Shown one piece after another: positions 18,301-46,107 of a DNA stretch of 46,107 nucleotides. Within the stretch, counting starts at the first letter, position 1. Every line of letters starts with the position of its first letter. Below the pieces are notes generated by a model. It saw only the letters and a list, made by a program, of their open reading frames with translations, was not told the origin of the DNA and did not search any database. A program made the position numbers and the translations under genes. Origin of the DNA: a virus. The stretch lies in IMG/VR virus record IMGVR_UViG_3300038436_000161, positions 1 to 46,107 of that record. One strand, written 5' to 3'.

Positions 18301-19551
18301 TTATCCGAAAATTGAGCGCCGCTTCACATCTTTTGCCACGTCTTCATACGAGATAGTCACGCCGGTTCGAATCACCGAAACCCCATCTGTGCCGCCTTTG
18401 AATTCGACATAGCGGCGAAGAATAACCGAAGCGTATTTCTCATCAAGCTCCATCATGTAACAAATCCGGTCAGCCTGCTCGCACGTGATGAGTGTCGAAC
18501 CTGAACCTCCGAATAAATCAAGCACAACCCCGTTAGGCTGGCTGGAATTTTGGATTGGGTAGGCCAGCAGCTCCAGGGGCTTTGCGGTAGGATGATCTTT
18601 GTTTTTCTTCGGTTTAGCGAAATTCCAAACAGTCTTTTCTGCACGTCCCGCGTACCACTTGTGCTTTCCATTTTTCAGCCAGCCAAAGAGGATCGGCTCG
18701 TGCTGCCACTGGTAGGGCGAGCGGCCCATGACGAAGGTGTCCTTTGCCCAGATACACACCCCGGACAGATGAAAGCCCGCGTCAACAAAAGCTCTGCGGA
18801 AATTAAGCCCCTCGGTGTCCGCGTGGAACACATATGCCGAGCCGCCGCTTTCAAGGTTTTCAGCCATATTCCGGAATGCGTCCAGGAGGAATTTATAGAA
18901 CTCATCCTTTTTCAGGCTGTCGTTTTTAATGGACAGCCCGCTGGCGCTTTTGTACGAAACCGCATATGGGGGATCGGTCAGCACAAGGTTTGCCTTGCAA
19001 CCGTCCATAAGCAGGGCAACGTCTGCGGCTTCGGTCGCGTCTCCGCAAACGAGCCGGTGCCGGCCGAGCGTCCAAACATCGCCGCGCCGGGCAAACGCCG
19101 CTTCTTCCAGAGCCGCCGAAAGGTCGAAGTTGTCGTCTTTGACATCCCCGACGCCCCCCATTAATTTGTTCAGTTCCGCATCGTCAAAGCCAGTGAGGGT
19201 AACATCAAAGTCGGCGCCCTGTAGGTCGGCGATAAGGAGGGCCAGCTTATTCTCATCCCATTCGCCCTGAATCTTGTTAAGAGCGATGTTGAGCGCCTTT
19301 TCTTTTTCTGCGTCCAGTTCCACGACCACGCAGTCAATTTCAGTAGCGCCGTCCGCCAGCAGTATTTTCAGCCGCTGGTGGCCGCCTACCACGTTGCCGG
19401 TGGTCTTGTTCCAAACAAGGGGTTCCACATAGCCGAACTCCTCCATGGAGCGTTTCAGCTTCTCGTATTCCGGGTCGCCTGGCTTTAGATCTTTGCGGGG
19501 GTTGTATTTTGCCGCCTTGATTTTTGAGACGGGAATTTTCTGTATCTCCAT
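18301..19551 (-). CDS. ParB-like nuclease domain fused to DNA methyltransferase (copy 1, DPPY type)
   Basis: A 416-residue fusion. Residues 1-130 are a ParB/Srx-like domain with SKIKAAKYNPRKDL and GGHQRLKILLADG. Residues about 160-400 are an amino-methyltransferase with TDPPYAVSYK as motif IV and LDLFGGSGSTL as motif I in the late position (beta class order), which fits N6-adenine methylation. The protein is paralogous to the neighbour at 19555-20862, and the ParB halves are much more alike than the catalytic halves. Such fusions are common near terminases, where they may protect packaged DNA or mark packaging sites. Confidence 0.9.
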   Translation of the reverse strand: MEIQKIPVSKIKAAKYNPRKDLKPGDPEYEKLKRSMEEFGYVEPLVWNKTTGNVVGGHQRLKILLADGATEIDCVVVELDAEKEKALNIALNKIQGEWDENKLALLIADLQGADFDVTLTGFDDAELNKLMGGVGDVKDDNFDLSAALEEAAFARRGDVWTLGRHRLVCGDATEAADVALLMDGCKANLVLTDPPYAVSYKSASGLSIKNDSLKKDEFYKFLLDAFRNMAENLESGGSAYVFHADTEGLNFRRAFVDAGFHLSGVCIWAKDTFVMGRSPYQWQHEPILFGWLKNGKHKWYAGRAEKTVWNFAKPKKNKDHPTAKPLELLAYPIQNSSQPNGVVLDLFGGSGSTLITCEQADRICYMMELDEKYASVILRRYVEFKGGTDGVSVIRTGVTISYEDVAKDVKRRSIFG

Positions 19552-19554
19552 ATT

Positions 19555-20862
19555 TTATCCCTCCAGTTTGACCGCTTTTTCGCCGGTGAAAGATTCCCAG
19601 CGCTTAACCGCCAAGTCGCAGTAAACGGGGGAAAGCTCCACAGCGTAACAGCGGCGCTCTAGCTGTTCCGCCGCGATGATGGTGGTGCCGCTGCCGGAGA
19701 AGGGCTCCAGTGCGATGCCGCCCCTGTCGCTGTGCATTTTCAAACAGCGCCACGGCAGCTCCACGGGGAACATGGCGGGATGCTCTTTGTTGGCGCGCAC
19801 CGTCGTCATTTCCCAGATGCCAGCGTAACCCCATTTTTTGCGCTCTTCCTTGGTAAGCCGTTTGACAAACCGGTAGCTGTGGCCGGCGAAGGCCGAAAGC
19901 CAGGCATATTCCTGATCGTTGTATTCCTCGATCTCGCCGTTCTTGCTGAAGGCCGAAACGTATTCATACTGCTGCACCGGCTTGTTGGATACCAGGTGGT
20001 AGGGGCCAACGCCGAAATTCATCCCTTGCTTTTTCCAGATGCGGATCCAGATGGGGCGGTAGCCGTTGTCGGCAAACATATTTACGCTGTAGACGCTGGT
20101 CGGCTCGATGAACTGGGAGCCGGTGGCGTAAAGGTCGCCCAGGTTCCAGCAGACGATGTCCGCGTATTTGCACAGGTTTTTGATCACCGGCCTGATGGTT
20201 TGAAACCAGGGCTCGATGCCAGCCTTTTCATATTCCTTACCTACGCCGTAGGGCGGCGAGGTAACGGCTACCTGCGCGTGGCCGCCGTCCATGAGCTTTG
20301 CGAAATCAGTCTCGCTGGTGGAATTTCCGCACATCAGGCGGTGCTGACCCAGCAGCCAAATGTCTCCCGGCTGGGTAATGGCGCCTTTTGCTTCGATGCG
20401 CTCTTTTTCCTTGTCCGGATCGAAGTCGTCCTGCACCGCTTCCTTGGAGTAGAATTTATTGAGCAGTTCATCTACCTCAGCAACGTCAAAACCGGTGAGG
20501 GACACGTCGAACGCGCCCGCGTCAAGCTCTGCCATCACTTCTGCCAGCTTATTCTCATCCCATTCGCCCTGAATCTTGTTAAGGGCGATATTGAGCGCCT
20601 TTTCCCGCTGCGCATCAAGCTCGACCACCACACAGTCGATCTCGGCGTGACCCAAAGCGAGCAGCACCTTTAAACGCTGGTGGCCGCCCACCACGTTGCC
20701 GGTCTGGCGATTCCAAACCACCGGCTCCACATAGCCGAATTCTTCGATGGAGCGTTTCAGCTTCTCGTATGCAGCGTCGCCGGGCTTCAGGTCTTTACGT
20801 GGGTTGTAGGCGGCGGGATTTAAGAGCCCGGCTTTAATTTTCTGTATGTTCAAGTCAACCAC
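19555..20862 (-). CDS. ParB-like nuclease domain fused to DNA methyltransferase (copy 2, SPPY type)
   Basis: A 435-residue fusion. The ParB half (AAYNPRKDLKPGD, GGHQRLKVLLALG, LNIALNKIQGEWDENKLA) nearly repeats that of copy 1. The methyltransferase half differs: motif IV is VTSPPYGVGKEYE and the SAM-binding motif is LEPFSGSGTTIIAAEQ. SPPY variants occur in N4-cytosine and some N6-adenine enzymes, so the modified base cannot be fixed from sequence. The gene overlaps the small terminase 3' end by 8 bases. It is probably co-transcribed with the small terminase. Confidence 0.9.
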   Translation of the reverse strand: MVDLNIQKIKAGLLNPAAYNPRKDLKPGDAAYEKLKRSIEEFGYVEPVVWNRQTGNVVGGHQRLKVLLALGHAEIDCVVVELDAQREKALNIALNKIQGEWDENKLAEVMAELDAGAFDVSLTGFDVAEVDELLNKFYSKEAVQDDFDPDKEKERIEAKGAITQPGDIWLLGQHRLMCGNSTSETDFAKLMDGGHAQVAVTSPPYGVGKEYEKAGIEPWFQTIRPVIKNLCKYADIVCWNLGDLYATGSQFIEPTSVYSVNMFADNGYRPIWIRIWKKQGMNFGVGPYHLVSNKPVQQYEYVSAFSKNGEIEEYNDQEYAWLSAFAGHSYRFVKRLTKEERKKWGYAGIWEMTTVRANKEHPAMFPVELPWRCLKMHSDRGGIALEPFSGSGTTIIAAEQLERRCYAVELSPVYCDLAVKRWESFTGEKAVKLEG

Positions 20863-34995: not shown

Positions 34996-36405
34996 TTACG
35001 TTGCCGTTTCCTTGTACGCTTTCGGTAGGATGGAGGGCAGGCCCAGCGCCCTCAAGACCTCGTCGCATTCATATATGGAGTGACCGCAATAAGAATAAAG
35101 CAGCTTTTTATATGCCAACTGCTGCGGCGAGTTATTCAGTTTATATCCCGCTAACTCAAGGAGCTGCTCCCCGAATACGCCTCCCAGTTCCAATCCGATG
35201 CAGATTTGCATGACTGTTTCGAGGGTGGGGTTCGGAAGCTGGCCAGCCTTTATTCTGTCAAACGTCTTATCCGACAAAAGCGTCGTGTCACAGAACACAA
35301 CCTTGTTATATCCCTTACGCAGGATGTGCGCCCACGCGACCTGAGTGAAATTCCCGACAGGCAAGCTAAGGAACTGACCTTCCTCAATATACTCTTTGTG
35401 GAGTTTCTTCAGTTTCTCCGAGCGGTTGAAAACATCCATGTTATGGCTGTCCACATTGAAGGTTGGCACCCGGTTGTAATCGGGCGTTGCTTTGCGGAAT
35501 ACGATGGAGTCGAGGTAAACAACGATATCCGTCTTAGCGGTTTCGTTGTATTTCAGGTCGAAGCGAACGCAGCACTCGTCAATGTGCGTTTTGGCATAAT
35601 CGGTCAACCCGATACCGCCTAACTCCGAACGCTTTATATATTTCGGATCGTTGATAACATAGTGACCATCCACATAGGTGAAATTGCCGCTGTCGATGAG
35701 GTGCCTAAAATACGGGTTGGCGAAATACTCGAAAAACGAATCGCTTAGACTGATGCTGTAGGTCTGATCCCGGCTCTTGGAGTCGGCATCGAAGAAGTAG
35801 CTGCTTATGTAATGGTCGTCCACATAGGTGTAGACGCCTTCCACTTCCTTATAACCAAGGTCAAGCATACGGATTTTCACCGCTGTCCTCGACACTTGGA
35901 AGAAGTCCGCAAGTTCAAAAAGGACGCTCTCCATGATGGCAAGCCTGTTGTTGGCACCGAAAAGCATAGTGTTCTGGCGGATGAGTTCTTCTATTTTCTG
36001 TATGGTGGTTGCTTTAGGCATGAGAATCCGCGGGGCGATCCCATTTGCGTGCCACTCCATCCAATCTGCAGGAGTCCAATCCCTTCTGTGTCTACCCTTC
36101 TCATGAACCTGACAGCTTATGCGGGCCGCATCTACATCATACATTCCCGCCAGTTCATGGTATTTTTTGTGTTTATACCAATGGACGCACTCGTGTATTA
36201 CGGTATTGTTCCAGCAACCGACACAGCGCATGAAGTATACGTCAGGATCAACGAGGATAGTGCCTCGTTCCACCTCCAGCGGTTTGTATTTACGCTCTTC
36301 GTAGCTGAAATATTCGATGGTACAGTCGTTAAATACAATTTCACCGAAAAGAGTGAAATGGCGAGAGATGTAATTCCTTAACCGTAAGCCCCATCCTTGC
36401 GGCAA
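34996..36405 (-). CDS. ImmA/IrrE-like metallopeptidase with C-terminal HTH-like region (frameshifted C-terminal part)
   Basis: A 469-codon frame. NNTVIHECVHWYKHKKYHEL holds the HExxH zinc site (His71, Glu72, His75) of ImmA/IrrE peptidases, which cleave phage or plasmid repressors. The C-terminal region around residues 385-430 (FDRIKAGQLPNPTLETVMQI) resembles an XRE-type helix-turn-helix. The first 15-20 codons do not look like a true start: homologues of this kind carry the preceding N-terminal domain in one chain, which here is read in another frame (36341-36913). The two overlap, and a missing CT dinucleotide near 36365 would restore one protein of about 639 residues. The gene may be inactive or a sequencing artefact. 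Confidence 0.75.
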   Translation of the reverse strand: MPQGWGLRLRNYISRHFTLFGEIVFNDCTIEYFSYEERKYKPLEVERGTILVDPDVYFMRCVGCWNNTVIHECVHWYKHKKYHELAGMYDVDAARISCQVHEKGRHRRDWTPADWMEWHANGIAPRILMPKATTIQKIEELIRQNTMLFGANNRLAIMESVLFELADFFQVSRTAVKIRMLDLGYKEVEGVYTYVDDHYISSYFFDADSKSRDQTYSISLSDSFFEYFANPYFRHLIDSGNFTYVDGHYVINDPKYIKRSELGGIGLTDYAKTHIDECCVRFDLKYNETAKTDIVVYLDSIVFRKATPDYNRVPTFNVDSHNMDVFNRSEKLKKLHKEYIEEGQFLSLPVGNFTQVAWAHILRKGYNKVVFCDTTLLSDKTFDRIKAGQLPNPTLETVMQICIGLELGGVFGEQLLELAGYKLNNSPQQLAYKKLLYSYCGHSIYECDEVLRALGLPSILPKAYKETAT

Positions 36406-36913
36406 CTTCGCGGGCAGGCACCGGCATAGGGGCTGTCAGGGCTTCGGGATAAAAATCCTTGAGAAACGCCTCAGCCACCTCGTCGAACTGTTCTTTCGCG
36501 ATGATCGGAACCAGGGCGTCAGACAAACGCCCCATCCTGCCCACGGGTTCTCTGCTGTAGGCCGAAACATTACGAACAGCGAAATTGCGGAGTCCGTTAT
36601 TCAAGTCTCCCCGGCAAGAAACTCGGAACCATTGCTCCACATCGTCAGTTTCACGGTTGCGGCGTATGGTTTCTGATATGATGATTTCTGCGGACACAAT
36701 AACATCGAAGAGAATTTCGTCCCCGGCTGAATCCGTGACATCGACCCTGTTCACTGTCAAGCCCGAAAGCTCAGCTTCATCCGGCTGCTCGACCCGGTAT
36801 GAACGGCAATCCAATTTATCCGGGTTGTCCTCAACGAATGTGAATACAACATCCCAGATATTGTTGTAAAACTCATTTGCGATTACATCTCTGAATGAAC
36901 GAAGTTCCGCCAT
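36341..36913 (-). CDS. N-terminal part of the ImmA/IrrE-like protein (frameshifted)
   Basis: About 190 residues from the ATG at 36913 (the frame is open to 36943). It starts MAELRSFRDVIANEFYNNIW and continues VVFTFVEDNPDKL. Its last meaningful part, REVAARMGLTVKELHL, runs straight into ISRHFTLFGEIVF of the other frame, which together make a continuous domain junction. A run of 11 G lies 10 bases upstream of the ATG and replaces a normal ribosome binding site. I treat this and the 34996-36405 frame as one broken gene. Confidence 0.7.
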   Translation of the reverse strand: MAELRSFRDVIANEFYNNIWDVVFTFVEDNPDKLDCRSYRVEQPDEAELSGLTVNRVDVTDSAGDEILFDVIVSAEIIISETIRRNRETDDVEQWFRVSCRGDLNNGLRNFAVRNVSAYSREPVGRMGRLSDALVPIIAKEQFDEVAEAFLKDFYPEALTAPMPVPAREVAARMGLTVKELHLSPFHSFR

Positions 36914-36921
36914 AGCAATAT

Positions 36922-36932
36922 CCCCCCCCCCC
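36922..36932 (-). repeat. G11 homopolymer at the metallopeptidase translation start
   Basis: Eleven C on the plus strand, read as G11 on the minus strand, end about 8 bases before the ATG at 36913. Such runs slip during replication and could change ribosome binding or the use of the upstream in-frame ATG at 36934. Confidence 0.6.
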
Positions 36933-37002
36933 ATAATTGACAATCAAAAAGCGTTCACCACAAATGTTATAAAAAATGATCAGGCAACAATGTCCAAGTC
37001 AA

Positions 37003-37101: not shown

Positions 37102-37193
37102 TTTATTATGTTAGGAACGATGATTGATTGCAAGCTAGATGCAATAACTGTACGCAGAACAAAGAGCAATCTCCGAATAGAGAGGTGTGAGCT

Positions 37194-37409
37194 GTGGGCG
37201 CAAGTTATAAGAAACTATGGAAATTGCTTATAGACCGTGATATGAAAAAGCGGGACTTGTGTGAAAAAGCGGGTGTGAGCGCCACTTCCATAGCAAAACT
37301 TGGAAAGGGCGAAAATGTAAACACGGACATACTGGTTAAGATATGCCGGGCTTTGGATTGCGGTATCAACGACATTATGGAAATAGTACCAGACGATGTC
37401 GGTAGATGA
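37194..37409 (+). CDS. XRE/Cro-CI family transcriptional regulator
   Basis: A 71-residue protein from a GTG after GAGAGGTG. It is almost entirely a helix-turn-helix domain: YKKLWKLLIDRDMKKRDLCE, AGVSATSIAKLGKGENVNTD, then ILVKICRALDCGINDIMEIV. Such YozG-like regulators are often the first gene of restriction-modification operons or lysogeny cassettes. It overlaps the first methyltransferase frame by 4 bases if that gene starts at 37406. It probably controls the two divergent promoters upstream. Confidence 0.9.
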   Translation: MGASYKKLWKLLIDRDMKKRDLCEKAGVSATSIAKLGKGENVNTDILVKICRALDCGINDIMEIVPDDVGR

Positions 37410-38770
37410 CTAATATAAAGAGCAAGCCACATCTGGTTAAAACCGAATTTGTTGGAGGTGGTGGCATGAGGACGTTAACGGAATTGCTTAGGACGGCAAC
37501 TTCAGACGTTATTGGTGCCAATGATTATAGAGAGTATAAGAACGATCTTTTCGCTGAAAGCAAAAAAGCGCTTCTAAAGTTTGAACCGTTTGATACGGGC
37601 GCAACCGCCACTAACCCTATTCAGGTTCTAGACTTTTTCAGTGGGGCTGGTGGAACCTCACTGGGTTTTGCGGCGATTAACCGTATATACCCCGTTTTTC
37701 GTTTCTTAGGCGGCTGCGACATCGACTCATTTTCAGCCGCAACCTACAGTAGGAATTTCGGAACCCCGAAAATTTGCGAAGACATCATTAAGATATTAGA
37801 GACATCCAACAGCATTCAGGAGTTTTTGCATAGCGTTAATTATAACCCCACTTTGCCTACCATACTGATTGGCTGCGCGCCTTGCCAAGGATTCACTTCC
37901 CATAGGAAGAAGCGGTGGAACGATGAGGATGACGACCGGAACAATCTTGTGGTCGCTTTTTCCCGGATTGTTGCCGAAATCAATCCATCCGCCTTTATCA
38001 TGGAAAACGTGCCGGAATTCTTGTCGAATCGGTACTGGAAATACTTCAGCAAAGCGAGAGCCGCTTTTTACAACGCCGGTTATATTGTGAAACAGAACAT
38101 CTATAACTCAGCCGCATTTGGCGTACCGCAGGAACGTTTCCGTTCGATCATCATTGGTATGAAGAAGGATTTCTTGCTGCCGGAAAACGTTTACACGCCG
38201 GAAGAATATAGGACCGTGCGGGATGCGATTGCTTCTCTTCGCCCAATCGCCGCAGGAGAAGCGGATCCTGCCGATCCATTACATAAAGCGGTTGCCCATA
38301 AACAAAGCACCCTTGAAATCATCAGGCAGGTTCCTCATGACGGAGGCAGTCTACCGGAAGGCGTTGGTCCTCAGTGCCTGACTCGGGTCGAGGGGTTTTA
38401 TGATGTTTATGGAAGGCTTAGCTGGGATAAGCCGGCTATTACGATAACGCATTATGCCCGTAATCCTGCCAGCGGCCGCTTTACGCACCCTGTGCAGGAC
38501 CGAGGGCTTACCGCAAGGGAGGCCGCCCGTCTTCAGAGCTTCCCCGACGGCTTTGTTTTTGAAGGAAAGTCTGACGATGTTTACCGGCAGATCGGTGAGG
38601 CCGTACCGCCGTTATTGTCCTGCGGGGTCGCCGCCAACCTGCTGCTTGAGCTTCTGTCCTGTGAGCCGACAAAAGCCCAATTAGAAGCCAGTGTTCAGGC
38701 CGTGGATTTGCCCGTTAGTAATTCTTATTCGAGCGTGATCGCTGGGATTAAGACAAGGAGGCGGGCTTGA
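37406..38770 (+). CDS. DNA C5-cytosine methyltransferase 1
   Basis: Up to 454 residues; a start at 37466 (434 residues) has the better ribosome binding site (GGAGGTGG), while 37406 would be ATGA-coupled to the regulator. Motifs seen: VLDFFSGAGGTSLGF (I), IGCAPCQGFTSHR (IV, catalytic Cys), IMENVPEFL (VI), AFGVPQERFRSIIIG (VIII), GLTAREAARLQSFPD (IX) and IGEAVPP (X). The N-terminal 60-70 residues before motif I are extra. The enzyme methylates cytosine at C5 in a target set by the variable region between VIII and IX, which cannot be read from sequence. Confidence 0.93.
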   Translation: MTNIKSKPHLVKTEFVGGGGMRTLTELLRTATSDVIGANDYREYKNDLFAESKKALLKFEPFDTGATATNPIQVLDFFSGAGGTSLGFAAINRIYPVFRFLGGCDIDSFSAATYSRNFGTPKICEDIIKILETSNSIQEFLHSVNYNPTLPTILIGCAPCQGFTSHRKKRWNDEDDDRNNLVVAFSRIVAEINPSAFIMENVPEFLSNRYWKYFSKARAAFYNAGYIVKQNIYNSAAFGVPQERFRSIIIGMKKDFLLPENVYTPEEYRTVRDAIASLRPIAAGEADPADPLHKAVAHKQSTLEIIRQVPHDGGSLPEGVGPQCLTRVEGFYDVYGRLSWDKPAITITHYARNPASGRFTHPVQDRGLTAREAARLQSFPDGFVFEGKSDDVYRQIGEAVPPLLSCGVAANLLLELLSCEPTKAQLEASVQAVDLPVSNSYSSVIAGIKTRRRA

Positions 38771-38771
38771 T

Positions 38772-39818
38772 ATGAGGTTTACTTGTGTGGACAGCTTTTC
38801 AGGCGCAGGGGGTCTGTCTTTAGGCCTCCAAGAAGCAGGGTTTGAGATGCTGTTTAGCTTTGATATCGATCCAAAATGTATTGATACGATAAAAAAGAAC
38901 CCGAAATATTTCAAGCATCCCGCCTTTTGCGAGGATATCCAGGATATGCTCGGAGGGCGACTGCTTGATAGGATTGGCTTAAAAAAGGGCGAGCTGTTCC
39001 TGCTCGCTGGCGGGCCTCCGTGCCAGGGATTTTCTGTCCAGCGCATTGGAGAGGACGCCGACAGCAGGAACGAACTCGTGCTTCTTTACGGAAACCTCAT
39101 AGATGAGGTCCGGCCTCTGTTTTTTATGATGGAGAATGTGTGTGGCATACAGGGAAAACGCGGAAACGTCATCCTTTTTGAATTGATAAGGCACATGGAA
39201 TCTATCGGCTATATCGTTCACAAGCAACTTGTCGATGCCGAAGATTATGGTGTTCCGCAACGCCGTAAACGCATCTTCTTAGTCGGGGAACGTAAAGATA
39301 TCGGTTCGAACTATGAGTTTCCAAAACCCACGGGTGAAAAGCATACCGTTCGCGAAACGATAGGCTTTTTGCCGCCGCCGCCAGAAGATGGGACTCCGCA
39401 TCCCGATTACCCCCTTCACAGACGAGACCGTTTATCTGAAAAGAACATCATGCGGCTGAAGGCATTGCAGCAGGGGCAGGGACGCGACCACCTGCCAGAA
39501 GAGTTGCTGGCTAATTGCCATCGCATTAACAGTGCGGTTATCGGGCATCGGAACGTATACGGCAGGATGTCGTGGGATGAAGTGGCGCCAACCATAACGG
39601 CCCGTTTTGATAGCTTCACGCGCGGGCTGTTTGGGCATCCCGAGCAATTACGAAGCATTTCATTATGCGAAGGCGCTTTATTGCAGACATTTCCCATTGA
39701 TTTCCTATTCGAGGGATCAAAAATAGATATTGCGCGGCAGATAGGGAATGCCGTGCCGCCAAAGCTGGCGAAAATCATTGGTGATAGCATCCTTAAGTAT
39801 TACTTGGGTAAGAGGTGA
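38772..39818 (+). CDS. DNA C5-cytosine methyltransferase 2
   Basis: A 348-residue enzyme starting directly with motif I (FTCVDSFSGAGGLSLGLQEA). Motif IV is LAGGPPCQGFSVQRIG, VI is MMENVCGIQG, VIII is DYGVPQRRKRIFLVGE, IX is in SLCEGALLQTFP and X is IGNAVPP. Its start is 1 base after the stop of methyltransferase 1 and uses an AGGAGG-like site. The two enzymes are only distantly related, so they probably have different targets or act on the two strands of an asymmetric site, as in some type II systems. Confidence 0.94.
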   Translation: MRFTCVDSFSGAGGLSLGLQEAGFEMLFSFDIDPKCIDTIKKNPKYFKHPAFCEDIQDMLGGRLLDRIGLKKGELFLLAGGPPCQGFSVQRIGEDADSRNELVLLYGNLIDEVRPLFFMMENVCGIQGKRGNVILFELIRHMESIGYIVHKQLVDAEDYGVPQRRKRIFLVGERKDIGSNYEFPKPTGEKHTVRETIGFLPPPPEDGTPHPDYPLHRRDRLSEKNIMRLKALQQGQGRDHLPEELLANCHRINSAVIGHRNVYGRMSWDEVAPTITARFDSFTRGLFGHPEQLRSISLCEGALLQTFPIDFLFEGSKIDIARQIGNAVPPKLAKIIGDSILKYYLGKR

Positions 39819-39824
39819 TCGGGT

Positions 39825-42800
39825 ATGCCATATCAAGCGATTATCAGAAGATATTTGTCCGGCCTACAACGGGATTATCAGGATGCACTTACAGGTCATC
39901 AGCACACCGCTGAGCTCTCTTTCCGGCCTTCCTTGGATAGGCTGTTCAAGGAGCTGGCTATGGAACTGAACGGCAGTCCCGATATCGTGGTCATACTCGA
40001 GCCCCGGAACCAGGCACGTATGGGGCGCCCCGACTGGCGTATCCATGACCGGAACACCCTGGGCGTTTATGGGTATATCGAGGCAAAAGGGCTGACGCCT
40101 ACCGCGTTTGATATCACACCGCACGAGGAGCAGTTCAACCGGTATCTCTCTTTAGGACATAAGCTGATCATTACAGATGGCATAGATTTCGTATACTCCT
40201 TTAACGAAGGCACCAGACCGCAAGTAGTTTCACTTATAGACAAGGCGCTGATGAACCGGCCGGACTGGTCGAGGCTTACGCACAATCCACAGTTCGAAGA
40301 TATGATGCGCAGGTTCTTCTCCGAGCCATTTCCGCAGTATTGCGACGAGGGACGCCTAGTCGAACTTGTAGCTCTTCGGACCCGTCTGCTTTCGAATGAG
40401 ATCCTGCGGTTTTCCGCTATCTCGGTAGCCGAAGCGATGGACGATGCGGAGAGGAACGCGATTACTTTGTTGGATGGGCTGTTGGAACTGGTGTATAACC
40501 ATAACGACCAAATGCTACGCCAAGACAGTGTTTTTGCGGATTTTGCTGCCCAGGTCATTATGTTTTCGTTGCTCTATGCGCACCGCGTGGAATGTACGGA
40601 TGCCGATTCACCAACGGTAAAAGAACAGAAGATTAGGGATTATTTATCCAGGGATATTGAGGGCGGGCAGGTGCTGCGACCGTTCCTAAAGATTATTCAC
40701 TATATTAACAGCCCCGGTAACGGGGATAGCTTCATCCTTACATGGACGGATGAGTGCATCCACTTTTTGTCTTTTGTGCATATGACAGAGCAGCAAAGGC
40801 AACGCCCGGACTACCATAAATTGTTCGAGCTCTTTTTGTCTAAATTTGATGCGCGTTCACGCTTCGACTATGGAGCGTATTACACCCCTAGTGAATTGGC
40901 CGACTGCATCGTCCGGTTAACGGAAGTGATAGCGAGACAGAGTTTTGACGGAAACAGCATTTTTGCCGATGGGAACACGCTAATCGATCCGTGCTGCGGA
41001 ACCGGTTCCTTCCTTGAAAGAATCAAGCAAAATGACGCGCAGAATGGTGCGTATACCTTATGCGGGATCGAGATTTTGCCCGCTCCTTACATGCTAGCCA
41101 CCTATCGAATGGCAATCCTTGATCAGGAACTGGAAGGCGGGCGTTCTCATAACGAACTGCTATTAGCGAACACTCTCAGCAACTGTGTTTTCGGAGAGCC
41201 CGCTAATACAGAAACGGTTGAAGGTTTTGAGCTTTACAGGGCCCACGAGATTGCGTCCAGACCTATCACTCTCGTGATTGGGAACCCACCCTCATCCGAT
41301 TCAGCTAAAACCAATGTGGGCGATGATTTCTCCGTAATCCTTGGACTAATGGATGATTTCCGTCCTCCTGCAGAAAACCGCCACGGCCGCCAGAATACGC
41401 AGAAGCAAATCAACAACCCGCACCTGCAATTCCTACGCTGGGGATGTGCGAAGTTGGCGGCTTCGCCAAACCATTCTGTCTTGGCGTATATCGTTCCGTC
41501 GACATTTCTCGAAGCCGAATCTTACAAGTATGCACGGAAATACATCGTCGAGAACTTTTCCAGCGTATGGATCGTTTCTGTGGATGCAGACGCACGGGCC
41601 GGAGTCCGCTCGGACAGTATATTTAAGACGCAACAAGGAAGAGCGATCCTGATCGCAACGCGCCGTTACGGCGAGCCGGTCGGTATCACCAGGTACCGGT
41701 ACTTCGATATCTCGCACTTCTCAAAAGCGCAGAAATCGTCTTGGTTGGAACAGGACGCCGGTGAGAGTATTAGCATGTTTTCAGAGCACGACCTTGACGA
41801 GGTAAGTTACGCCCTTTGCCCTTCCTTGCCGTTTGACGAGGAGCTCTATTCATCGTATTGGCCCGTAAGCGGTGAGAATGAGCCAAACGCGATCTTCAAG
41901 CAGCATTGCTCAGGCATAAAGCTGGCTCCGACCAGTATCTTTACTCATCTGAAAGCACCCATGCTCAAACGACGTAGCAGGGATATCATGCAACGCGGCG
42001 TCCCGGCGGCCGAAGAATGGCTGTCTAGGCAGGACAAGCCGCCGAAAGAAATCGAAACCCGTTTCTTTGCCGAGCAACTAGCCGCGCAAGGCAATGCTCA
42101 GGCGGTAGACGCACTTCTTGACGTAAACATCGTTGACTATGCGTTAAGGCCATTCTTGCCGGTGAAAGCCTTTCTGTGGCAGGACCTGCTACATCGTTTC
42201 AGCCGTGTTGGAGGCGGGGGAACAAGAAGGCGCCCCGAAATAAGCGTAGCGTTTTCTTCCGAAGGCACCGTTGGTTTTGCGTTATCCCACTCGCCCAAAG
42301 ACCAAAAAGACATGCTCAAGCAATTTGCTTCGTTCTGCTGGTATTACCCGGATAACGATCTGTGCAGACGAGGTAATTCCTATATCTACCTCAATCAGTA
42401 TCCCGTAAGGGGAACCCGGAACGGAGTGATTGGAAATAATATCAACGACCGGCTTTGCGGCAGACTGTCTGGGCTGCTTGGGCTCGATATGGGTCCAGTT
42501 GCAACAGAAGTAGTCTTTTATACCTTTGCGGTTCTCTGCTCTCAGGTGTATCTGGACGAGTTCGAGGGAGCGTTGTTTACAGTTAATAGGGCCGATATGC
42601 GTCCTCGCATCCCGATTGTGGACCATGCGGACATTTTCAGGAGTCTGGCTTCTCTTGGCCGCAGAATTGCCGAACTGGAAAAAAGGGACTATATCCCCGC
42701 AAACCACATGGGGTTCGATTTTTCCGCTATTCAAGCTCAGATACCGGCGGGCTTCCGGCTGAGATGGGTTGACCAGCCCTTTGATGAAGAGCACGAGACT

Positions 42801-43076
42801 TTCACCCTGACGGACGGAGCCACTCGGATCGAGATACCTTGCCCGCTTGATGTGCAGCGGATCAATATTGCGGGGTATGATGTCATTAAGAACGTCTGGT
42901 TGAAGTTTAACTCATATGATTTCACGCATTGTGCATTCTCGCCGGAGGATGTAACGGACCTTCTTAACCTCATAAACAAGCTTATTGAGTATGTGGGGTT
43001 GGTTGGTGAAATCGATATTGTGATGCACGAAATCATAGAAGGTGGGTATCCTCTGATTCGACCGAATGATGAGTAA
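39825..43076 (+). CDS. Type IIG-like restriction-modification enzyme (nuclease plus N6-adenine methyltransferase)
   Basis: A 1083-residue protein. Residues about 60-95 hold a possible PD-(D/E)XK nuclease site: RMGRPDWRIHD followed by GYIEAKG. A helical connector follows. The gamma-type N6-adenine methyltransferase core starts near residue 375: FDYGAYYTPSELADCIVRL (motif X region), TLIDPCCGTGSFLERI (motif I, about residue 386) and VIGNPPSSDSA (motif IV, about residue 486). The last 500 residues are probably target recognition (for example FSRVGGGGTRRRPEISVAF). No helicase motifs are seen, so it is not type I, III or ISP with a translocase. It sits between the methyltransferases and vsr with a 6-base gap before it. 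Confidence 0.85.
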   Translation: MPYQAIIRRYLSGLQRDYQDALTGHQHTAELSFRPSLDRLFKELAMELNGSPDIVVILEPRNQARMGRPDWRIHDRNTLGVYGYIEAKGLTPTAFDITPHEEQFNRYLSLGHKLIITDGIDFVYSFNEGTRPQVVSLIDKALMNRPDWSRLTHNPQFEDMMRRFFSEPFPQYCDEGRLVELVALRTRLLSNEILRFSAISVAEAMDDAERNAITLLDGLLELVYNHNDQMLRQDSVFADFAAQVIMFSLLYAHRVECTDADSPTVKEQKIRDYLSRDIEGGQVLRPFLKIIHYINSPGNGDSFILTWTDECIHFLSFVHMTEQQRQRPDYHKLFELFLSKFDARSRFDYGAYYTPSELADCIVRLTEVIARQSFDGNSIFADGNTLIDPCCGTGSFLERIKQNDAQNGAYTLCGIEILPAPYMLATYRMAILDQELEGGRSHNELLLANTLSNCVFGEPANTETVEGFELYRAHEIASRPITLVIGNPPSSDSAKTNVGDDFSVILGLMDDFRPPAENRHGRQNTQKQINNPHLQFLRWGCAKLAASPNHSVLAYIVPSTFLEAESYKYARKYIVENFSSVWIVSVDADARAGVRSDSIFKTQQGRAILIATRRYGEPVGITRYRYFDISHFSKAQKSSWLEQDAGESISMFSEHDLDEVSYALCPSLPFDEELYSSYWPVSGENEPNAIFKQHCSGIKLAPTSIFTHLKAPMLKRRSRDIMQRGVPAAEEWLSRQDKPPKEIETRFFAEQLAAQGNAQAVDALLDVNIVDYALRPFLPVKAFLWQDLLHRFSRVGGGGTRRRPEISVAFSSEGTVGFALSHSPKDQKDMLKQFASFCWYYPDNDLCRRGNSYIYLNQYPVRGTRNGVIGNNINDRLCGRLSGLLGLDMGPVATEVVFYTFAVLCSQVYLDEFEGALFTVNRADMRPRIPIVDHADIFRSLASLGRRIAELEKRDYIPANHMGFDFSAIQAQIPAGFRLRWVDQPFDEEHETFTLTDGATRIEIPCPLDVQRINIAGYDVIKNVWLKFNSYDFTHCAFSPEDVTDLLNLINKLIEYVGLVGEIDIVMHEIIEGGYPLIRPNDE

Positions 43077-43089
43077 GAGGTGAGCGCTG

Positions 43090-43518
43090 ATGGCTGACGT
43101 GTACGATAAAAAAATGCGTTCTTCCGTTATGCAAAAGGTGCGCTCAAAGGGAAATAAGTCCACAGAACTACGTTTAATTAAGTTGTTCCGCAAAAACAAC
43201 ATTTCTGGCTGGAGGCGCAACTACCCTGTGAAGGGGCATCCCGATTTCGTGTTCCCAGACAAGAAGGTTGTTGTCTTTGTCGACGGATGTTTCTGGCATG
43301 GGCACGACTGCCGCAATACACGTCCGAAGGAGAACGAGGAATACTGGGCAAAAAAGCGAGAGCGCAACGTGCGGCACGACAAAGAGATCACTGCCATTTT
43401 CGAAGGCCGAAGCTGGACTGTACTGCGGATTTGGGAGTGCGAATTAAAGAAAAAGAATCTACCGCTATTGATTGAAAAATTAAAGACAGTCCTTTTCGCA
43501 GATTTGCAGGAGTTGTGA
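43090..43518 (+). CDS. vsr: Very short patch repair endonuclease (Vsr)
   Basis: A 142-residue Vsr enzyme. Family motifs are DKKMRSSVMQKVRSKGNKST, the catalytic GHPDFVFPDKKVVVFVDGC (Asp), FWHGHDCRNTRPKENEEYW (zinc and His) and RSWTVLRIWECEL. Vsr nicks at T:G mismatches that arise when 5-methylcytosine deaminates. Its position next to two C5 methyltransferases fits that role. The ribosome binding site is AGAGGTGAG. The next gene starts 1 base after its stop. Confidence 0.95.
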   Translation: MADVYDKKMRSSVMQKVRSKGNKSTELRLIKLFRKNNISGWRRNYPVKGHPDFVFPDKKVVVFVDGCFWHGHDCRNTRPKENEEYWAKKRERNVRHDKEITAIFEGRSWTVLRIWECELKKKNLPLLIEKLKTVLFADLQEL

Positions 43519-43519
43519 T

Positions 43520-43999
43520 ATGAGCTTTTTGGAAACACCTGGGGTTCCGAATAATGGCTGGATTTGCAGCGGAATGATTAATTTACGGGAGGACGATCCC
43601 GAAACGGAACTTGGAAACGTGCGAAACGGCAAAGAAGGCATACGGTATGTACATATCATGGAACATCCGCAATATCCGCAAACAGTGAGAGCGGGTCGCG
43701 TTTGCGCGGGAAAAATGGAGAATGATTATGCCGTTCCATGGCAGCGTGAACGCGAGTTGCTCAATCGGCACAACAGAAAAATGACTTTCCTGAAACGAGA
43801 ATGGCAATACCGCCAAAACGGCAACTACGTTCTGAAATTCAAGGGAGAGTGTTTAACGATAATTCCGAGTAAATATAATAAAAATCACTACGGTGTAATA
43901 TATGGCGGTCGGAGCGTCTGGAAATACAAAGGCAGGAAAATATCGGATTTGCGAACTGCAAAGTTGGCGGCTTTCGATATTTTCGATGCGTTGAGATAA
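43520..43999 (+). CDS. Uncharacterised protein inside the defence operon
   Basis: A 159-residue basic protein with an AGGAG site before its ATG, 1 base after the vsr stop. RYVHIMEHPQYPQTVRAGRV, then CAGKMENDY, resembles a small conserved core seen in phage and plasmid proteins that carry metal-binding Cys (here Cys16 and Cys62 are the likely pair). The C-terminus (KFKGECLTIIPSKYNKNHYG, VIYGGRSVWKYKGRKISDL) is a predicted beta-rich domain. No enzyme motif is seen. Its place between vsr and the OLD-type ATPase suggests a part in the same system. I do not recognise the family with certainty. Confidence 0.7.
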   Translation: MSFLETPGVPNNGWICSGMINLREDDPETELGNVRNGKEGIRYVHIMEHPQYPQTVRAGRVCAGKMENDYAVPWQRERELLNRHNRKMTFLKREWQYRQNGNYVLKFKGECLTIIPSKYNKNHYGVIYGGRSVWKYKGRKISDLRTAKLAAFDIFDALR

Positions 44000-44065
44000 T
44001 TGGTTTGTACAAATCCTACGGCACAAAAGCAGAGGCAAGTCATAAAAACTTTGTGAGGTGTAGTA

Positions 44066-46096
44066 ATGTATATTTCCAAAGTAACCATTCGCAACTTCAG
44101 AGTATTCGATAGCGAAGGCATTACCGCCTCATTTAAAAAGGGAGTCAATGCTGTTATTAGCGAAAACAACTGCGGCAAAACCGCCCTTGTAGACGCATTA
44201 AGGCTTGCTTTTTCAACAATGTCATATCGGAAAGAAATTTACTTTAACTTCTCGGATTTCCATATGGATAGCCGTGGGATACGAAGCAATGAGACGTCTA
44301 TTGATGTGTACCTTGATGAGGTGCCGCCGGATTTGTTTGAGATTTGGGATCCCGAGGACACGACAAAAGGAGAATTCCATGTTCGCTATTATACCGTTCG
44401 TGCATCTGACAGCAAAGAGAAGATACGTTACCGGATATGGGGCGGTCCCGTTGAGGGAAATACTATCTCAGCAGAAACATTTGAGGCTATTCGAGTCGCA
44501 TACTTAGGTGCGCTCAGAGATGCGGAAAATGAATTAAAACCCGCTCGAACCGGCAAGCTGGCAACACTGTTCACTTCGATTGTAAACACAGATGAAGCAA
44601 AGGATCGCGTGCTGTCTGCGATTAAACTCGCTAACTCCGATATTGAGAGACAAGACTCCATAAATCAGCTTCGGGAGATTATCAACACCAACCTATCTGT
44701 GCTTGAGCAGGACTTGCTCAGGCAGCAAGTTGGCGTTGGTTTGGTTGAACCGCGATTTGAGTCCATCGCAGCCTCATTGAGGGCATGGATCAGACCTCGT
44801 TGGATTTATATAAAAAACGACAACCCTGTACTTCAAGAAGTAAAAGAGCTTTATGCCGATGATGAATGGGCGCAATCTAATGATACCGAGAGCGACGGCG
44901 TTTATGTTGATGTGTGGTCATTGGAAAGTAAGGGACTCAGCGAAGAAATCAGAGGGACTCTCTCGTCTGAACTCAGCAAGAAGTTTGAGATAATGCAAAA
45001 CGGGCTGGGCTATAATAACTTGCTCTTTATGGCGGCGGTATTAGGCGATATTAAAGCCGCCACCGCTGAAACGCTGTTCAGTTTGCTGTTGGTGGAAGAA
45101 CCTGAAGCCCATCTGCATCCGCAGCTTCAAGAACTTGTACACAGCTTTTTTGAAAAGAACTCAAACAAAGACAATGTGCAAGTGCTTTACACTTCGCATT
45201 CGCCGACACTTGTTTCCCGTATCGGCATTGATAAGATTGTAATTTTATACGAAAACGCTCACAGGGTAAACTGTTTATCACTTTCAGAGAGCAATTTGGA
45301 TGAAAGGGATAGGTTCTACCTAGAGCGTTACCTTGATGTAACAAAATCGCAGATGCTTTTTGCGAAGGGTATCCTATTTGTTGAGGGCATCAGCGAAGCG
45401 CTCCTATTACCGAGCTTTGCAAAATTGATCGACCGTCCGCTTGATAAATACGCCATTTCGGTGGTTAATGTGGACGGTGTTTCGTTTGAACCGTTTTCCA
45501 AACTCCTTTGTTTTGCTAATGACCCACAAAGGCAAACCATTAAAGCGGCTATAATTACAGATGACGACCGTTGTACTGATAAGACAGTGTCAGAGCAGTA
45601 TATTCCAAAAGATTTAGATTTTGAATGTGAGCATCCAGTTTTAAAGGACATTGTTTCAAAGCTGGATGCAGGCGTGGCTTCCGCTCGATATGCGAAGATA
45701 GCTGAATTGTGCGGCTCTGCGCATATTAGCGTTTTCGGAGCGCCGAAAACACTCGAATACGCACTTTCCTTATCCGAAACGAATATCCACTATATGTTAA
45801 GTGCGGTAATCGATGTTTATCCGCAGGCGGGGAAGAATTTGTTCGTAAAAATTAATCAACTTGGCAGCGTTAAAGAAAAAGCCGCTTGTATTTGGCTGTT
45901 CATACGCGAACGATCGCAAAACAAAGCGCAATTTGCTCAAGCGCTGTTGCGAAGAGTACATTGTAAAAAGATTGTTTGCCAAAAAGGCGATGATTCTTTT
46001 GAAGATGTGGCTCTTACTCATAAGCGAGGGAAAAAGCTGGACATTGACCCTGCTCTATGTTATGATACAATAAAAGGTTGTGAGCAGGAGAGATGA
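44066..46096 (+). CDS. OLD-family ATPase with TOPRIM nuclease domain
   Basis: A 676-residue protein. MYISKVTIRNFRVFDSEGI starts the SMC-like ATPase; Walker A is AVISENNCGKTALVDALRL (Ser where most OLD proteins have Gly). LLLVEEPEAHLHPQLQ is Walker B and VLYTSHSPTLVSRI is the H-loop. The TOPRIM part has GILFVEGISEALLLPSFAKL (the Glu), VVNVDGVSF and AIITDDDR. OLD nucleases act in phage defence (for example the Gabija A subunit, with a UvrD-like helicase next to it). A new gene starts just after this one, but it is outside the window. Confidence 0.92.
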   Translation: MYISKVTIRNFRVFDSEGITASFKKGVNAVISENNCGKTALVDALRLAFSTMSYRKEIYFNFSDFHMDSRGIRSNETSIDVYLDEVPPDLFEIWDPEDTTKGEFHVRYYTVRASDSKEKIRYRIWGGPVEGNTISAETFEAIRVAYLGALRDAENELKPARTGKLATLFTSIVNTDEAKDRVLSAIKLANSDIERQDSINQLREIINTNLSVLEQDLLRQQVGVGLVEPRFESIAASLRAWIRPRWIYIKNDNPVLQEVKELYADDEWAQSNDTESDGVYVDVWSLESKGLSEEIRGTLSSELSKKFEIMQNGLGYNNLLFMAAVLGDIKAATAETLFSLLLVEEPEAHLHPQLQELVHSFFEKNSNKDNVQVLYTSHSPTLVSRIGIDKIVILYENAHRVNCLSLSESNLDERDRFYLERYLDVTKSQMLFAKGILFVEGISEALLLPSFAKLIDRPLDKYAISVVNVDGVSFEPFSKLLCFANDPQRQTIKAAIITDDDRCTDKTVSEQYIPKDLDFECEHPVLKDIVSKLDAGVASARYAKIAELCGSAHISVFGAPKTLEYALSLSETNIHYMLSAVIDVYPQAGKNLFVKINQLGSVKEKAACIWLFIRERSQNKAQFAQALLRRVHCKKIVCQKGDDSFEDVALTHKRGKKLDIDPALCYDTIKGCEQER

Positions 46097-46098
46097 TT

Positions 46099-46107
46099 AT
46101 GTCAGAC
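46099..46107 (+). CDS. Start of a further gene (truncated by the window edge)
   Basis: After the OLD gene stop an AGGAG (46086-46090) stands 8 bases before an ATG at 46099, which continues ATG TCA GAC to the edge. An ATG at 46093 overlapping the stop is also possible. Only three codons are seen, so nothing about the product can be said. A UvrD-like helicase here would complete a Gabija-type pair. Confidence 0.4.

What the first reader, a model, noticed from the sequence alone, without database searches (positions are those of the whole stretch)
37194..46107. Compact defence operon: XRE, two C5-methyltransferases, IIG-like enzyme, Vsr, unknown protein, OLD ATPase
Seven plus-strand genes run from one good promoter with gaps of 1-70 bases. 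Two C5-methyltransferases, a nuclease-N6-methyltransferase, Vsr, a 159-residue unknown and an OLD-family TOPRIM nuclease form a set I cannot match to one named system. The operon reads against the phage lytic genes and is carried as cargo. It may be two systems joined (restriction-modification plus OLD) or one larger, undescribed system.
Basis: partly seen in the sequence, partly recalled or inferred. Interest (0 to 1): 0.75.

Follow-up and report, generated by a model that had tools for sequence, protein, structure and literature searches.

The report
Two defence systems stacked on prophage
A phage genome carries two neighbouring anti-phage systems. One is a rare restriction system in which the cutting enzyme seems to have lost its own DNA-marking activity and relies on two separate marking enzymes. 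The other is an ordinary Gabija system cut off by the end of the contig.

Summary
The seven plus-strand genes are real, but they are not one system.

(1) C5a, C5b, the 1083-aa nuclease-methyltransferase and Vsr form a recurring restriction-modification (R-M) module. Three other viral contigs (L142, L143, L144) carry C5a-C5b-IIG with a Vsr beside it. In all four, the IIG-like enzyme keeps its PD-(D/E)xK nuclease and SAM-binding motifs but has NPPS or NPPC in place of the catalytic NPPY. All 38 aligned relatives outside this clade have NPPY, and none of 61 has a C5 or Vsr gene nearby. I infer a IIG-derived endonuclease whose adenine methylation is dead or changed and whose host protection comes from two dedicated C5 methyltransferases.

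(2) The "OLD ATPase" is GajA. The contig ends 11 bases after its stop, on an ATG that probably starts GajB.

(3) The 159-aa protein (p160 family) matches no model in Pfam, PADLOC, NCBIfam or PHROGs. It sits beside Gabija, Wadjet, BREX and type I R-M in many phyla, and also in phage replication operons. The window copy has lost its CxxC.

XRE and Vsr-p160 frame an exchangeable R-M core: L002 has HaeII there. L014 has C5-REase-Vsr-p160-GajA-GajB.

Verdict: two joined systems. The R-M half is a new variant of a known kind.

The parts
37194..37409 (+). XRE/Cro-type HTH (71 aa), probable controller; shared with L002 at the same prophage position, not part of the conserved R-M module
   Evidence: HTH_26 4e-20; 76% DNA identity to L002 at 37179-37397
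37406..38770 (+). C5a: C5-cytosine methyltransferase (454 aa), catalytic PCQ and ENV motifs present
   Evidence: PF00145 1e-53; orthologues in L142, L143, L144 at 51-62% identity with a near-invariant TRD
38772..39818 (+). C5b: second, different C5-cytosine methyltransferase (348 aa)
   Evidence: PF00145 1e-58; orthologues at 58-66% identity with a near-invariant TRD different from C5a
39825..43076 (+). IIG-derived endonuclease (1083 aa): N-terminal PD-(D/E)xK (P69 D70, E86xK88), gamma-MTase domain with motif I DPCCGTG and motif IV NPPS instead of NPPY, C-terminal Type_ISP_C specificity domain
   Evidence: AlphaFold model pLDDT 84.8; best PDB folds DrdV, LlaBIII, LlaGI, BpuSI
43090..43518 (+). 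Vsr-type T:G mismatch endonuclease (142 aa)
   Evidence: PF03852 3e-22, TIGR00632 above its cut-off; Vsr also adjoins the module in L142, L143, L144
43520..43999 (+). p160-family protein (159 aa) with N-terminal Zn-type site (CxxC..HxxxH..C in the family); this copy has lost both cysteines of CxxC
   Evidence: family of 158 genome hits and 41 viral hits
44066..46096 (+). GajA (676 aa): OLD-type ATPase plus TOPRIM, Gabija
   Evidence: PDLC00071 GajA 576 bits, OLD-like_TOPRIM 5e-14, 46% identity to L019 GajA followed by GajB
46099..46107 (+). first three codons of a next gene (ATG TCA GAC), inferred to be gajB, cut by the end of the record
   Evidence: GajB starts right after GajA in L019 and L014

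Best explanation
The cargo is two separate defence systems placed end to end behind a small XRE gene. The first is a four-gene Type II R-M system: C5a and C5b methylate cytosines of an asymmetric site, one enzyme per strand (inferred), and the 1083-aa IIG-derived enzyme recognises unmodified sites through its C-terminal specificity domain and cuts with its N-terminal PD-(D/E)xK domain. Its gamma-methyltransferase domain probably still binds SAM (motif I and the Asn of motif IV are kept) and acts as a DNA-recognition and allosteric module, but it no longer methylates adenine efficiently because the base-stacking Tyr is Ser or Cys. Vsr repairs the T:G mismatches that arise when 5-methylcytosine deaminates. 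The second system is Gabija (GajA plus a GajB beyond the contig end). The p160 protein between them is a widely distributed accessory gene, here probably damaged. Shown: gene content, motifs, recurrence, clade structure, predicted folds. Inferred: SAM binding, loss of methylation, strand division of the two C5 enzymes, identity of the missing gene.
For: C5a-C5b-IIG in the same order with an adjacent Vsr in L142, L143 and L144. The four IIG proteins form one clade with 100/100 support, at 37-53% identity to the window and from contigs of 43-58% GC. Motif IV is NPPS or NPPC in 4/4 and NPPY in 38/38 other relatives, while nuclease and SAM motifs stay conserved. No C5 or Vsr gene was found near any of 61 non-redundant outgroup loci (Fisher p 1.5e-6, but this is one evolutionary event). 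The MTase domain is conserved as well as or better than the nuclease domain (45-59% against 31-58%), so it is not simply decaying. Precedents: in BpuSI the companion MTases, not the IIG domain, are thought to protect the host, and the SAM-binding Asn of NPPY is needed for cleavage (PMC3817140); TspGWI N473A cleaves but does not methylate (PMC2700111); a review notes that accompanying MTases methylate both strands in monomeric IIG systems and that the aromatic of NPP(Y/F/W) stacks the flipped base (PMC3874165). Gabija.
Against: The four members are one clade, so the Tyr loss and the C5 pairing are one event, not independent replications. The window Vsr is about 78% identical to the Vsr of a HaeII system in L002, closer than to L142 (64%), so Vsr may be swapped in rather than co-inherited. 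The module is rare: no member at the thresholds used in about 1,390 genomes searched, nor in the plasmid or phage collections. NPP[SC] has not been shown to be inactive. GajB is not seen.
Confidence: 0.72

Rival explanations
1. The 1083-aa enzyme is an ordinary active IIG/IIL enzyme that still methylates adenine despite Ser/Cys at motif IV, and the two C5 methyltransferases add a second protective layer or are a separate modification system.
For: Motif I, motif X and the NPP of motif IV are intact and the MTase domain is under strong constraint. Multi-MTase IIG systems such as BpuSI keep an active IIG MTase.
Against: NPPY is kept in 38/38 relatives but lost in 4/4 members with C5 partners. The aromatic residue stacks the flipped base (PMC3874165).
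Confidence: 0.17
2. All genes from XRE to GajA form one integrated larger system in which p160 links the R-M and Gabija parts.
For: L014 (Pelotomaculum) has C5 MTase-REase-Vsr-p160-GajA-GajB in the same order with different R-M genes and a different GajA subfamily. Vsr-p160 is a shared 79% DNA block in the window, L002 and L014.
Against: L142-L144 have no p160 and no GajA. L019 has p160-GajA-GajB without C5, IIG or Vsr homologues. In L002 the same Vsr-p160 is followed by a SIR2-like gene instead. The window p160 has lost its CxxC.
Confidence: 0.08
3. The MTase domain has been repurposed as a reader of methylation state (for example sensing 5mC or hemimethylated sites) that licenses the nuclease, rather than being a passive remnant. 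This is a sub-hypothesis of the best explanation, so the confidences overlap.
For: Conserved GNPP[SC]SDS and a domain identity of 45-59% across divergent members.
Against: No direct evidence; an allosteric SAM-binding role known from BpuSI explains the conservation equally well.
Confidence: 0.12

Closest known systems
BpuSI / BspLU11III R-M system (Type IIG with M1 and M2 companions)
   Same: Single-chain nuclease-gammaMTase-TRD enzyme plus two separate MTases, one of them C5, thought to supply most host protection (PMC3817140)
   Different: Here both companions are C5 enzymes, none is N6A, the IIG enzyme has lost the NPPY aromatic, and a Vsr is attached; overall fold match to BpuSI is weaker than to DrdV
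DrdV (Type IIG)
   Same: Best full-length fold match and best PDB sequence match of the 1083-aa enzyme
   Different: DrdV carries its cognate methyltransferase activity in the same chain (PMC10201449); here the catalytic aromatic is lost and two C5 genes accompany it
Type ISP enzymes LlaBIII / LlaGI
   Same: MTase core and Type_ISP_C specificity domain
   Different: No helicase/translocase found by Pfam; 1083 aa against 1578 aa
Gabija (GajA/GajB)
   Same: GajA matches PADLOC GajA at 576 bits; order p160-GajA-GajB in L019
   Different: GajB itself lies beyond the contig end
HaeII-type R-M with HhH-GPD glycosylase and Vsr (L002)
   Same: Same prophage-like position, same XRE, same Vsr-p160 block
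   Different: Unrelated R-M core: one C5 MTase plus HaeII endonuclease

Membership tests
Type IIG restriction enzyme | N-terminal PD-(D/E)xK nuclease in the same chain | tested here: met
   P69 D70, E86xK88 conserved 4/4 and in most relatives; model fold matches DrdV
Type IIG restriction enzyme | gamma-class MTase with SAM motif I | tested here: met
   DPCCGTG, N6_Mtase 5e-12
Type IIG restriction enzyme | catalytic motif IV NPP(Y/F/W) | tested here: not met
   NPPS in the window; NPPC, NPPC, NPPS in L142-L144; NPPY in 38/38 aligned relatives
Type IIG restriction enzyme | own adenine methylation and SAM-dependent cleavage | not testable with these tools
   needs biochemistry or methylome data
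Type ISP | SF2 helicase/translocase domain between nuclease and MTase | tested here: not met
   No helicase in Pfam; total length 1083 aa
BpuSI-like IIG with N6A and C5 companions | companion N6A MTase plus companion C5 MTase | tested here: not met
   Both companions are C5 (PF00145); no second N6A gene in the module
Gabija | GajA: OLD-type ATPase plus TOPRIM | tested here: met
Gabija | GajB UvrD-type helicase next to GajA | tested here: inconclusive
   Record ends three codons into the next gene; GajB present at that place in L019 and L014
Vsr | Vsr endonuclease family profile and a C5 MTase partner | tested here: met
   TIGR00632 104.7 bits over cut-off 97.85
DISARM / Druantia | DrmA/DrmB or DruE partner genes | tested here: not met
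   DrmMII and DruM hits reflect shared C5 MTase similarity only; no partner gene among the operon or the two flanking genes
p160: any existing protein family | match to a Pfam, PADLOC, NCBIfam or PHROG model | tested here: not met
   No significant hit for intact members

The most novel reading that the evidence does not exclude
A new R-M architecture in which a bifunctional IIG enzyme has turned its methyltransferase into a non-methylating SAM/DNA-sensing module while protection moved to a strand-divided pair of C5 methyltransferases; and p160 is an undescribed Zn-binding helper protein serving several defence systems (Gabija, Wadjet, BREX, type I R-M).
Probability: 0.25. Interest if true: 0.75.

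Novelty: new variant of a known kind. Interest (0 to 1): 0.55.

Why it matters
Type IIG enzymes are thought to diversify freely because cutting and marking share one specificity domain. A clade that gave up its own marking and adopted two external C5 enzymes would test how that coupling breaks, and whether the MTase domain is kept only for SAM-dependent control of cleavage. The TRDs of both C5 enzymes are nearly invariant across four divergent systems, which suggests that the module is locked to one target, as expected if three enzymes must agree. The p160 family, absent from the libraries searched yet common beside defence genes, is a ready target for experiments.

Tried and rejected
One seven-gene system: rejected because the R-M module recurs without p160/GajA and Gabija recurs without the R-M genes. 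DISARM, Druantia, MADS: hits are shared-domain similarity only. Single-sequence scans of viral contigs with the IIG and GajA proteins found nothing; an alignment with plasmid type ISP relatives was needed to find L142-L144, and a second scan with the four-member alignment added none. Genome searches for further members in Clostridia, the Pelotomaculum class, Pseudomonadota, Bacteroidota and the Acidobacteria MAG's phylum found none. The p160 model found no convincing PDB or BFVD fold match by Foldseek; VIA-align gave at best Z 6.3, in its C-terminal part only, below the level the tool treats as meaningful. A second p160 copy in the window phage core (24072-24569) was considered: it reads as an HNH endonuclease-like protein and the p160 profile does not match it. 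Paper searches found no description of a IIG enzyme with two C5 partners and Vsr, but the library lacks most subscription journals and REBASE was not available. No recognition motif could be predicted.
Full report
OBSERVATION. The window is a complete IMG/VR virus record of 46,107 bases, so its right edge is the contig end. Seven plus-strand ORFs at 37194-46096 are as described. Pfam, PADLOC and NCBIfam identify HTH_26, two C5 DNA methylases, N6_Mtase plus Type_ISP_C, Vsr, a protein without a family, and an OLD/GajA protein. The rest of the record is a tailed phage on the opposite strand: terminase, portal, major head protein, DNA polymerase, primase-helicase, tail. Promoter-like matches in the region are not above chance.

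THE R-M MODULE RECURS. A scan of 2.9 million viral contigs, using the 1083-aa protein aligned with seven plasmid 'type ISP' relatives, returned three full-length close relatives, L142 (53%), L143 (39%) and L144 (37%); the next hits were near 23%. All three carry C5a-C5b-IIG in that order, with Vsr after it (L142, L143) or before it (L144); the L143 IIG frame is broken near its C-terminus. A second scan with the four sequences found no more. The four form one clade with 100/100 support on a long stem, yet differ by up to 63% in sequence and come from contigs of 43-58% GC. Keeping the same gene set over that divergence argues for a functional unit.

A LOST CATALYTIC RESIDUE. In the alignment of 42 proteins the nuclease residues (P69 D70, E86xK88), motif X, motif I and the NPP of motif IV are conserved in the clade as in its relatives, but the fourth residue of motif IV is Tyr in 38/38 relatives and Ser, Cys, Cys, Ser in the clade. 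The seven plasmid relatives also read NPPY. None of 61 non-redundant outgroup loci has a C5 or Vsr gene in the DNA held (up to 7 kb on each side, phmmer E<1e-5). The MTase domain remains at least as conserved as the nuclease domain (45-59% against 31-58%), so it is under selection. The aromatic stacks the flipped base in gamma-class enzymes (PMC3874165). In BpuSI the Asn of the motif is needed for SAM binding and for cleavage, and companion MTases are thought to do most of the protecting (PMC3817140). In TspGWI, N473A separates cutting from marking (PMC2700111). Keeping Asn but losing Tyr is what one would expect of an enzyme that still needs SAM to cut but no longer methylates. This last step is inference.

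TWO C5 ENZYMES, NOT DUPLICATES. C5a and C5b form two orthologue groups (51-62% and 58-66% within groups, about 35% between them), each with intact PCQ and ENV motifs and its own near-invariant target-recognition stretch: YGRL.WD.PAITITHYARNPASGR in C5a, YGRM.WD.VAPTITARFDSFTRG in C5b. I infer that each marks one strand of a shared asymmetric site that has not changed across the four systems.

STRUCTURE. The AlphaFold model of the 1083-aa protein (pLDDT 84.8, pTM 0.80) is closest to the IIG enzyme DrdV over its whole length, then LlaBIII, LlaGI and BpuSI; DrdV and LlaBIII are also the only PDB matches by sequence profile.

GABIJA. The last protein scores 576 bits against a PADLOC GajA model. 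Its 46%-identical relative in L019 is preceded by p160 and followed by GajB. In the window an ATG lies two bases after the gajA stop, and the contig ends nine bases into that frame. I infer a truncated gajB.

p160. The 159-aa protein belongs to a family with 158 genome hits and 41 viral hits from Clostridia to Proteobacteria, Bacteroidetes, Planctomycetes and Cyanobacteria. Conserved C34, C37, H46, H50 and C63 suggest a metal site. Its model is confident (pLDDT 93.4) but no known fold stands out. Neighbours include GajA+GajB within four genes in 9 of 126 loci and Wadjet JetC in 9, as well as BrxL, type I specificity and methyltransferase subunits, PsyrT and WYL proteins, but also plasmid replication and phage primase-helicase genes. 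It is therefore a mobile-element protein often found with defence genes, not a component unique to this operon. The window copy is the only one of 58 aligned members lacking both CxxC cysteines, through a +1/-4 indel pair.

CASSETTE EXCHANGE. L002, a viral contig with the same kind of flanking gene, shares the XRE gene (76% DNA) and the Vsr-p160 block (79%) with the window, but between them carries a HaeII methyltransferase, HaeII endonuclease and HhH-GPD glycosylase, and after p160 a SIR2-like gene. L014 (Pelotomaculum) has C5 MTase-REase-Vsr-p160-GajA-GajB, with another R-M core and another GajA subfamily. Vsr-p160 looks like a constant hinge around which R-M and second defence modules are swapped. 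This weakens any claim that Vsr is strictly co-inherited with the IIG module.

NOVELTY. Related multi-enzyme IIG systems are known (Eco57I, BpuSI, BseRI; PMC3874165). I found no description of a IIG-derived enzyme with a degenerate motif IV and two C5 partners, with the limits of the library in mind. I file it as a new variant of a known kind. Gabija is ordinary. The p160 family is undescribed in the libraries searched.

Noticed in passing
window 34996-36943 (-): Two ORFs (469 and 200 aa) are the two parts of one phrog_4031 protein that is intact in L002 (643 aa), so the window carries a frameshift near 36380; with the p160 indels this may be decay or assembly error.
   Followed up: partly
L002 3424-14767: Viral contig with XRE, HaeII methyltransferase and endonuclease, HhH-GPD glycosylase, Vsr, p160, a SIR2-like gene and a DNA methyltransferase: a second cargo set at the same kind of prophage position.
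   Followed up: partly
L027 6093-8492: A p160 domain lies in one 800-aa open frame in a Burkholderiaceae genome; elsewhere a ~646-aa protein of unknown family lies directly upstream of p160, so this may be a fusion of the two.
   Followed up: no
L102, L117, L120-L123, L128, L095-L097: Viral contigs similar at DNA level to the window phage carry their own p160 directly after a large gene of the replication region, a place where the window phage has none.
   Followed up: partly
window 18301-20862 (-): Two adjacent ParB-DNA methyltransferase fusion proteins (phrog_498) in the phage core, which may be the phage's own modification enzymes.
   Followed up: no
L028, L042, L044, L046, L048, L049, L056, L084, L091: p160 follows Wadjet genes (JetA/JetC/JetD confirmed by PADLOC on representatives; JetD-p160 spacing is constant in several) in genomes of different proteobacteria.
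   Followed up: partly
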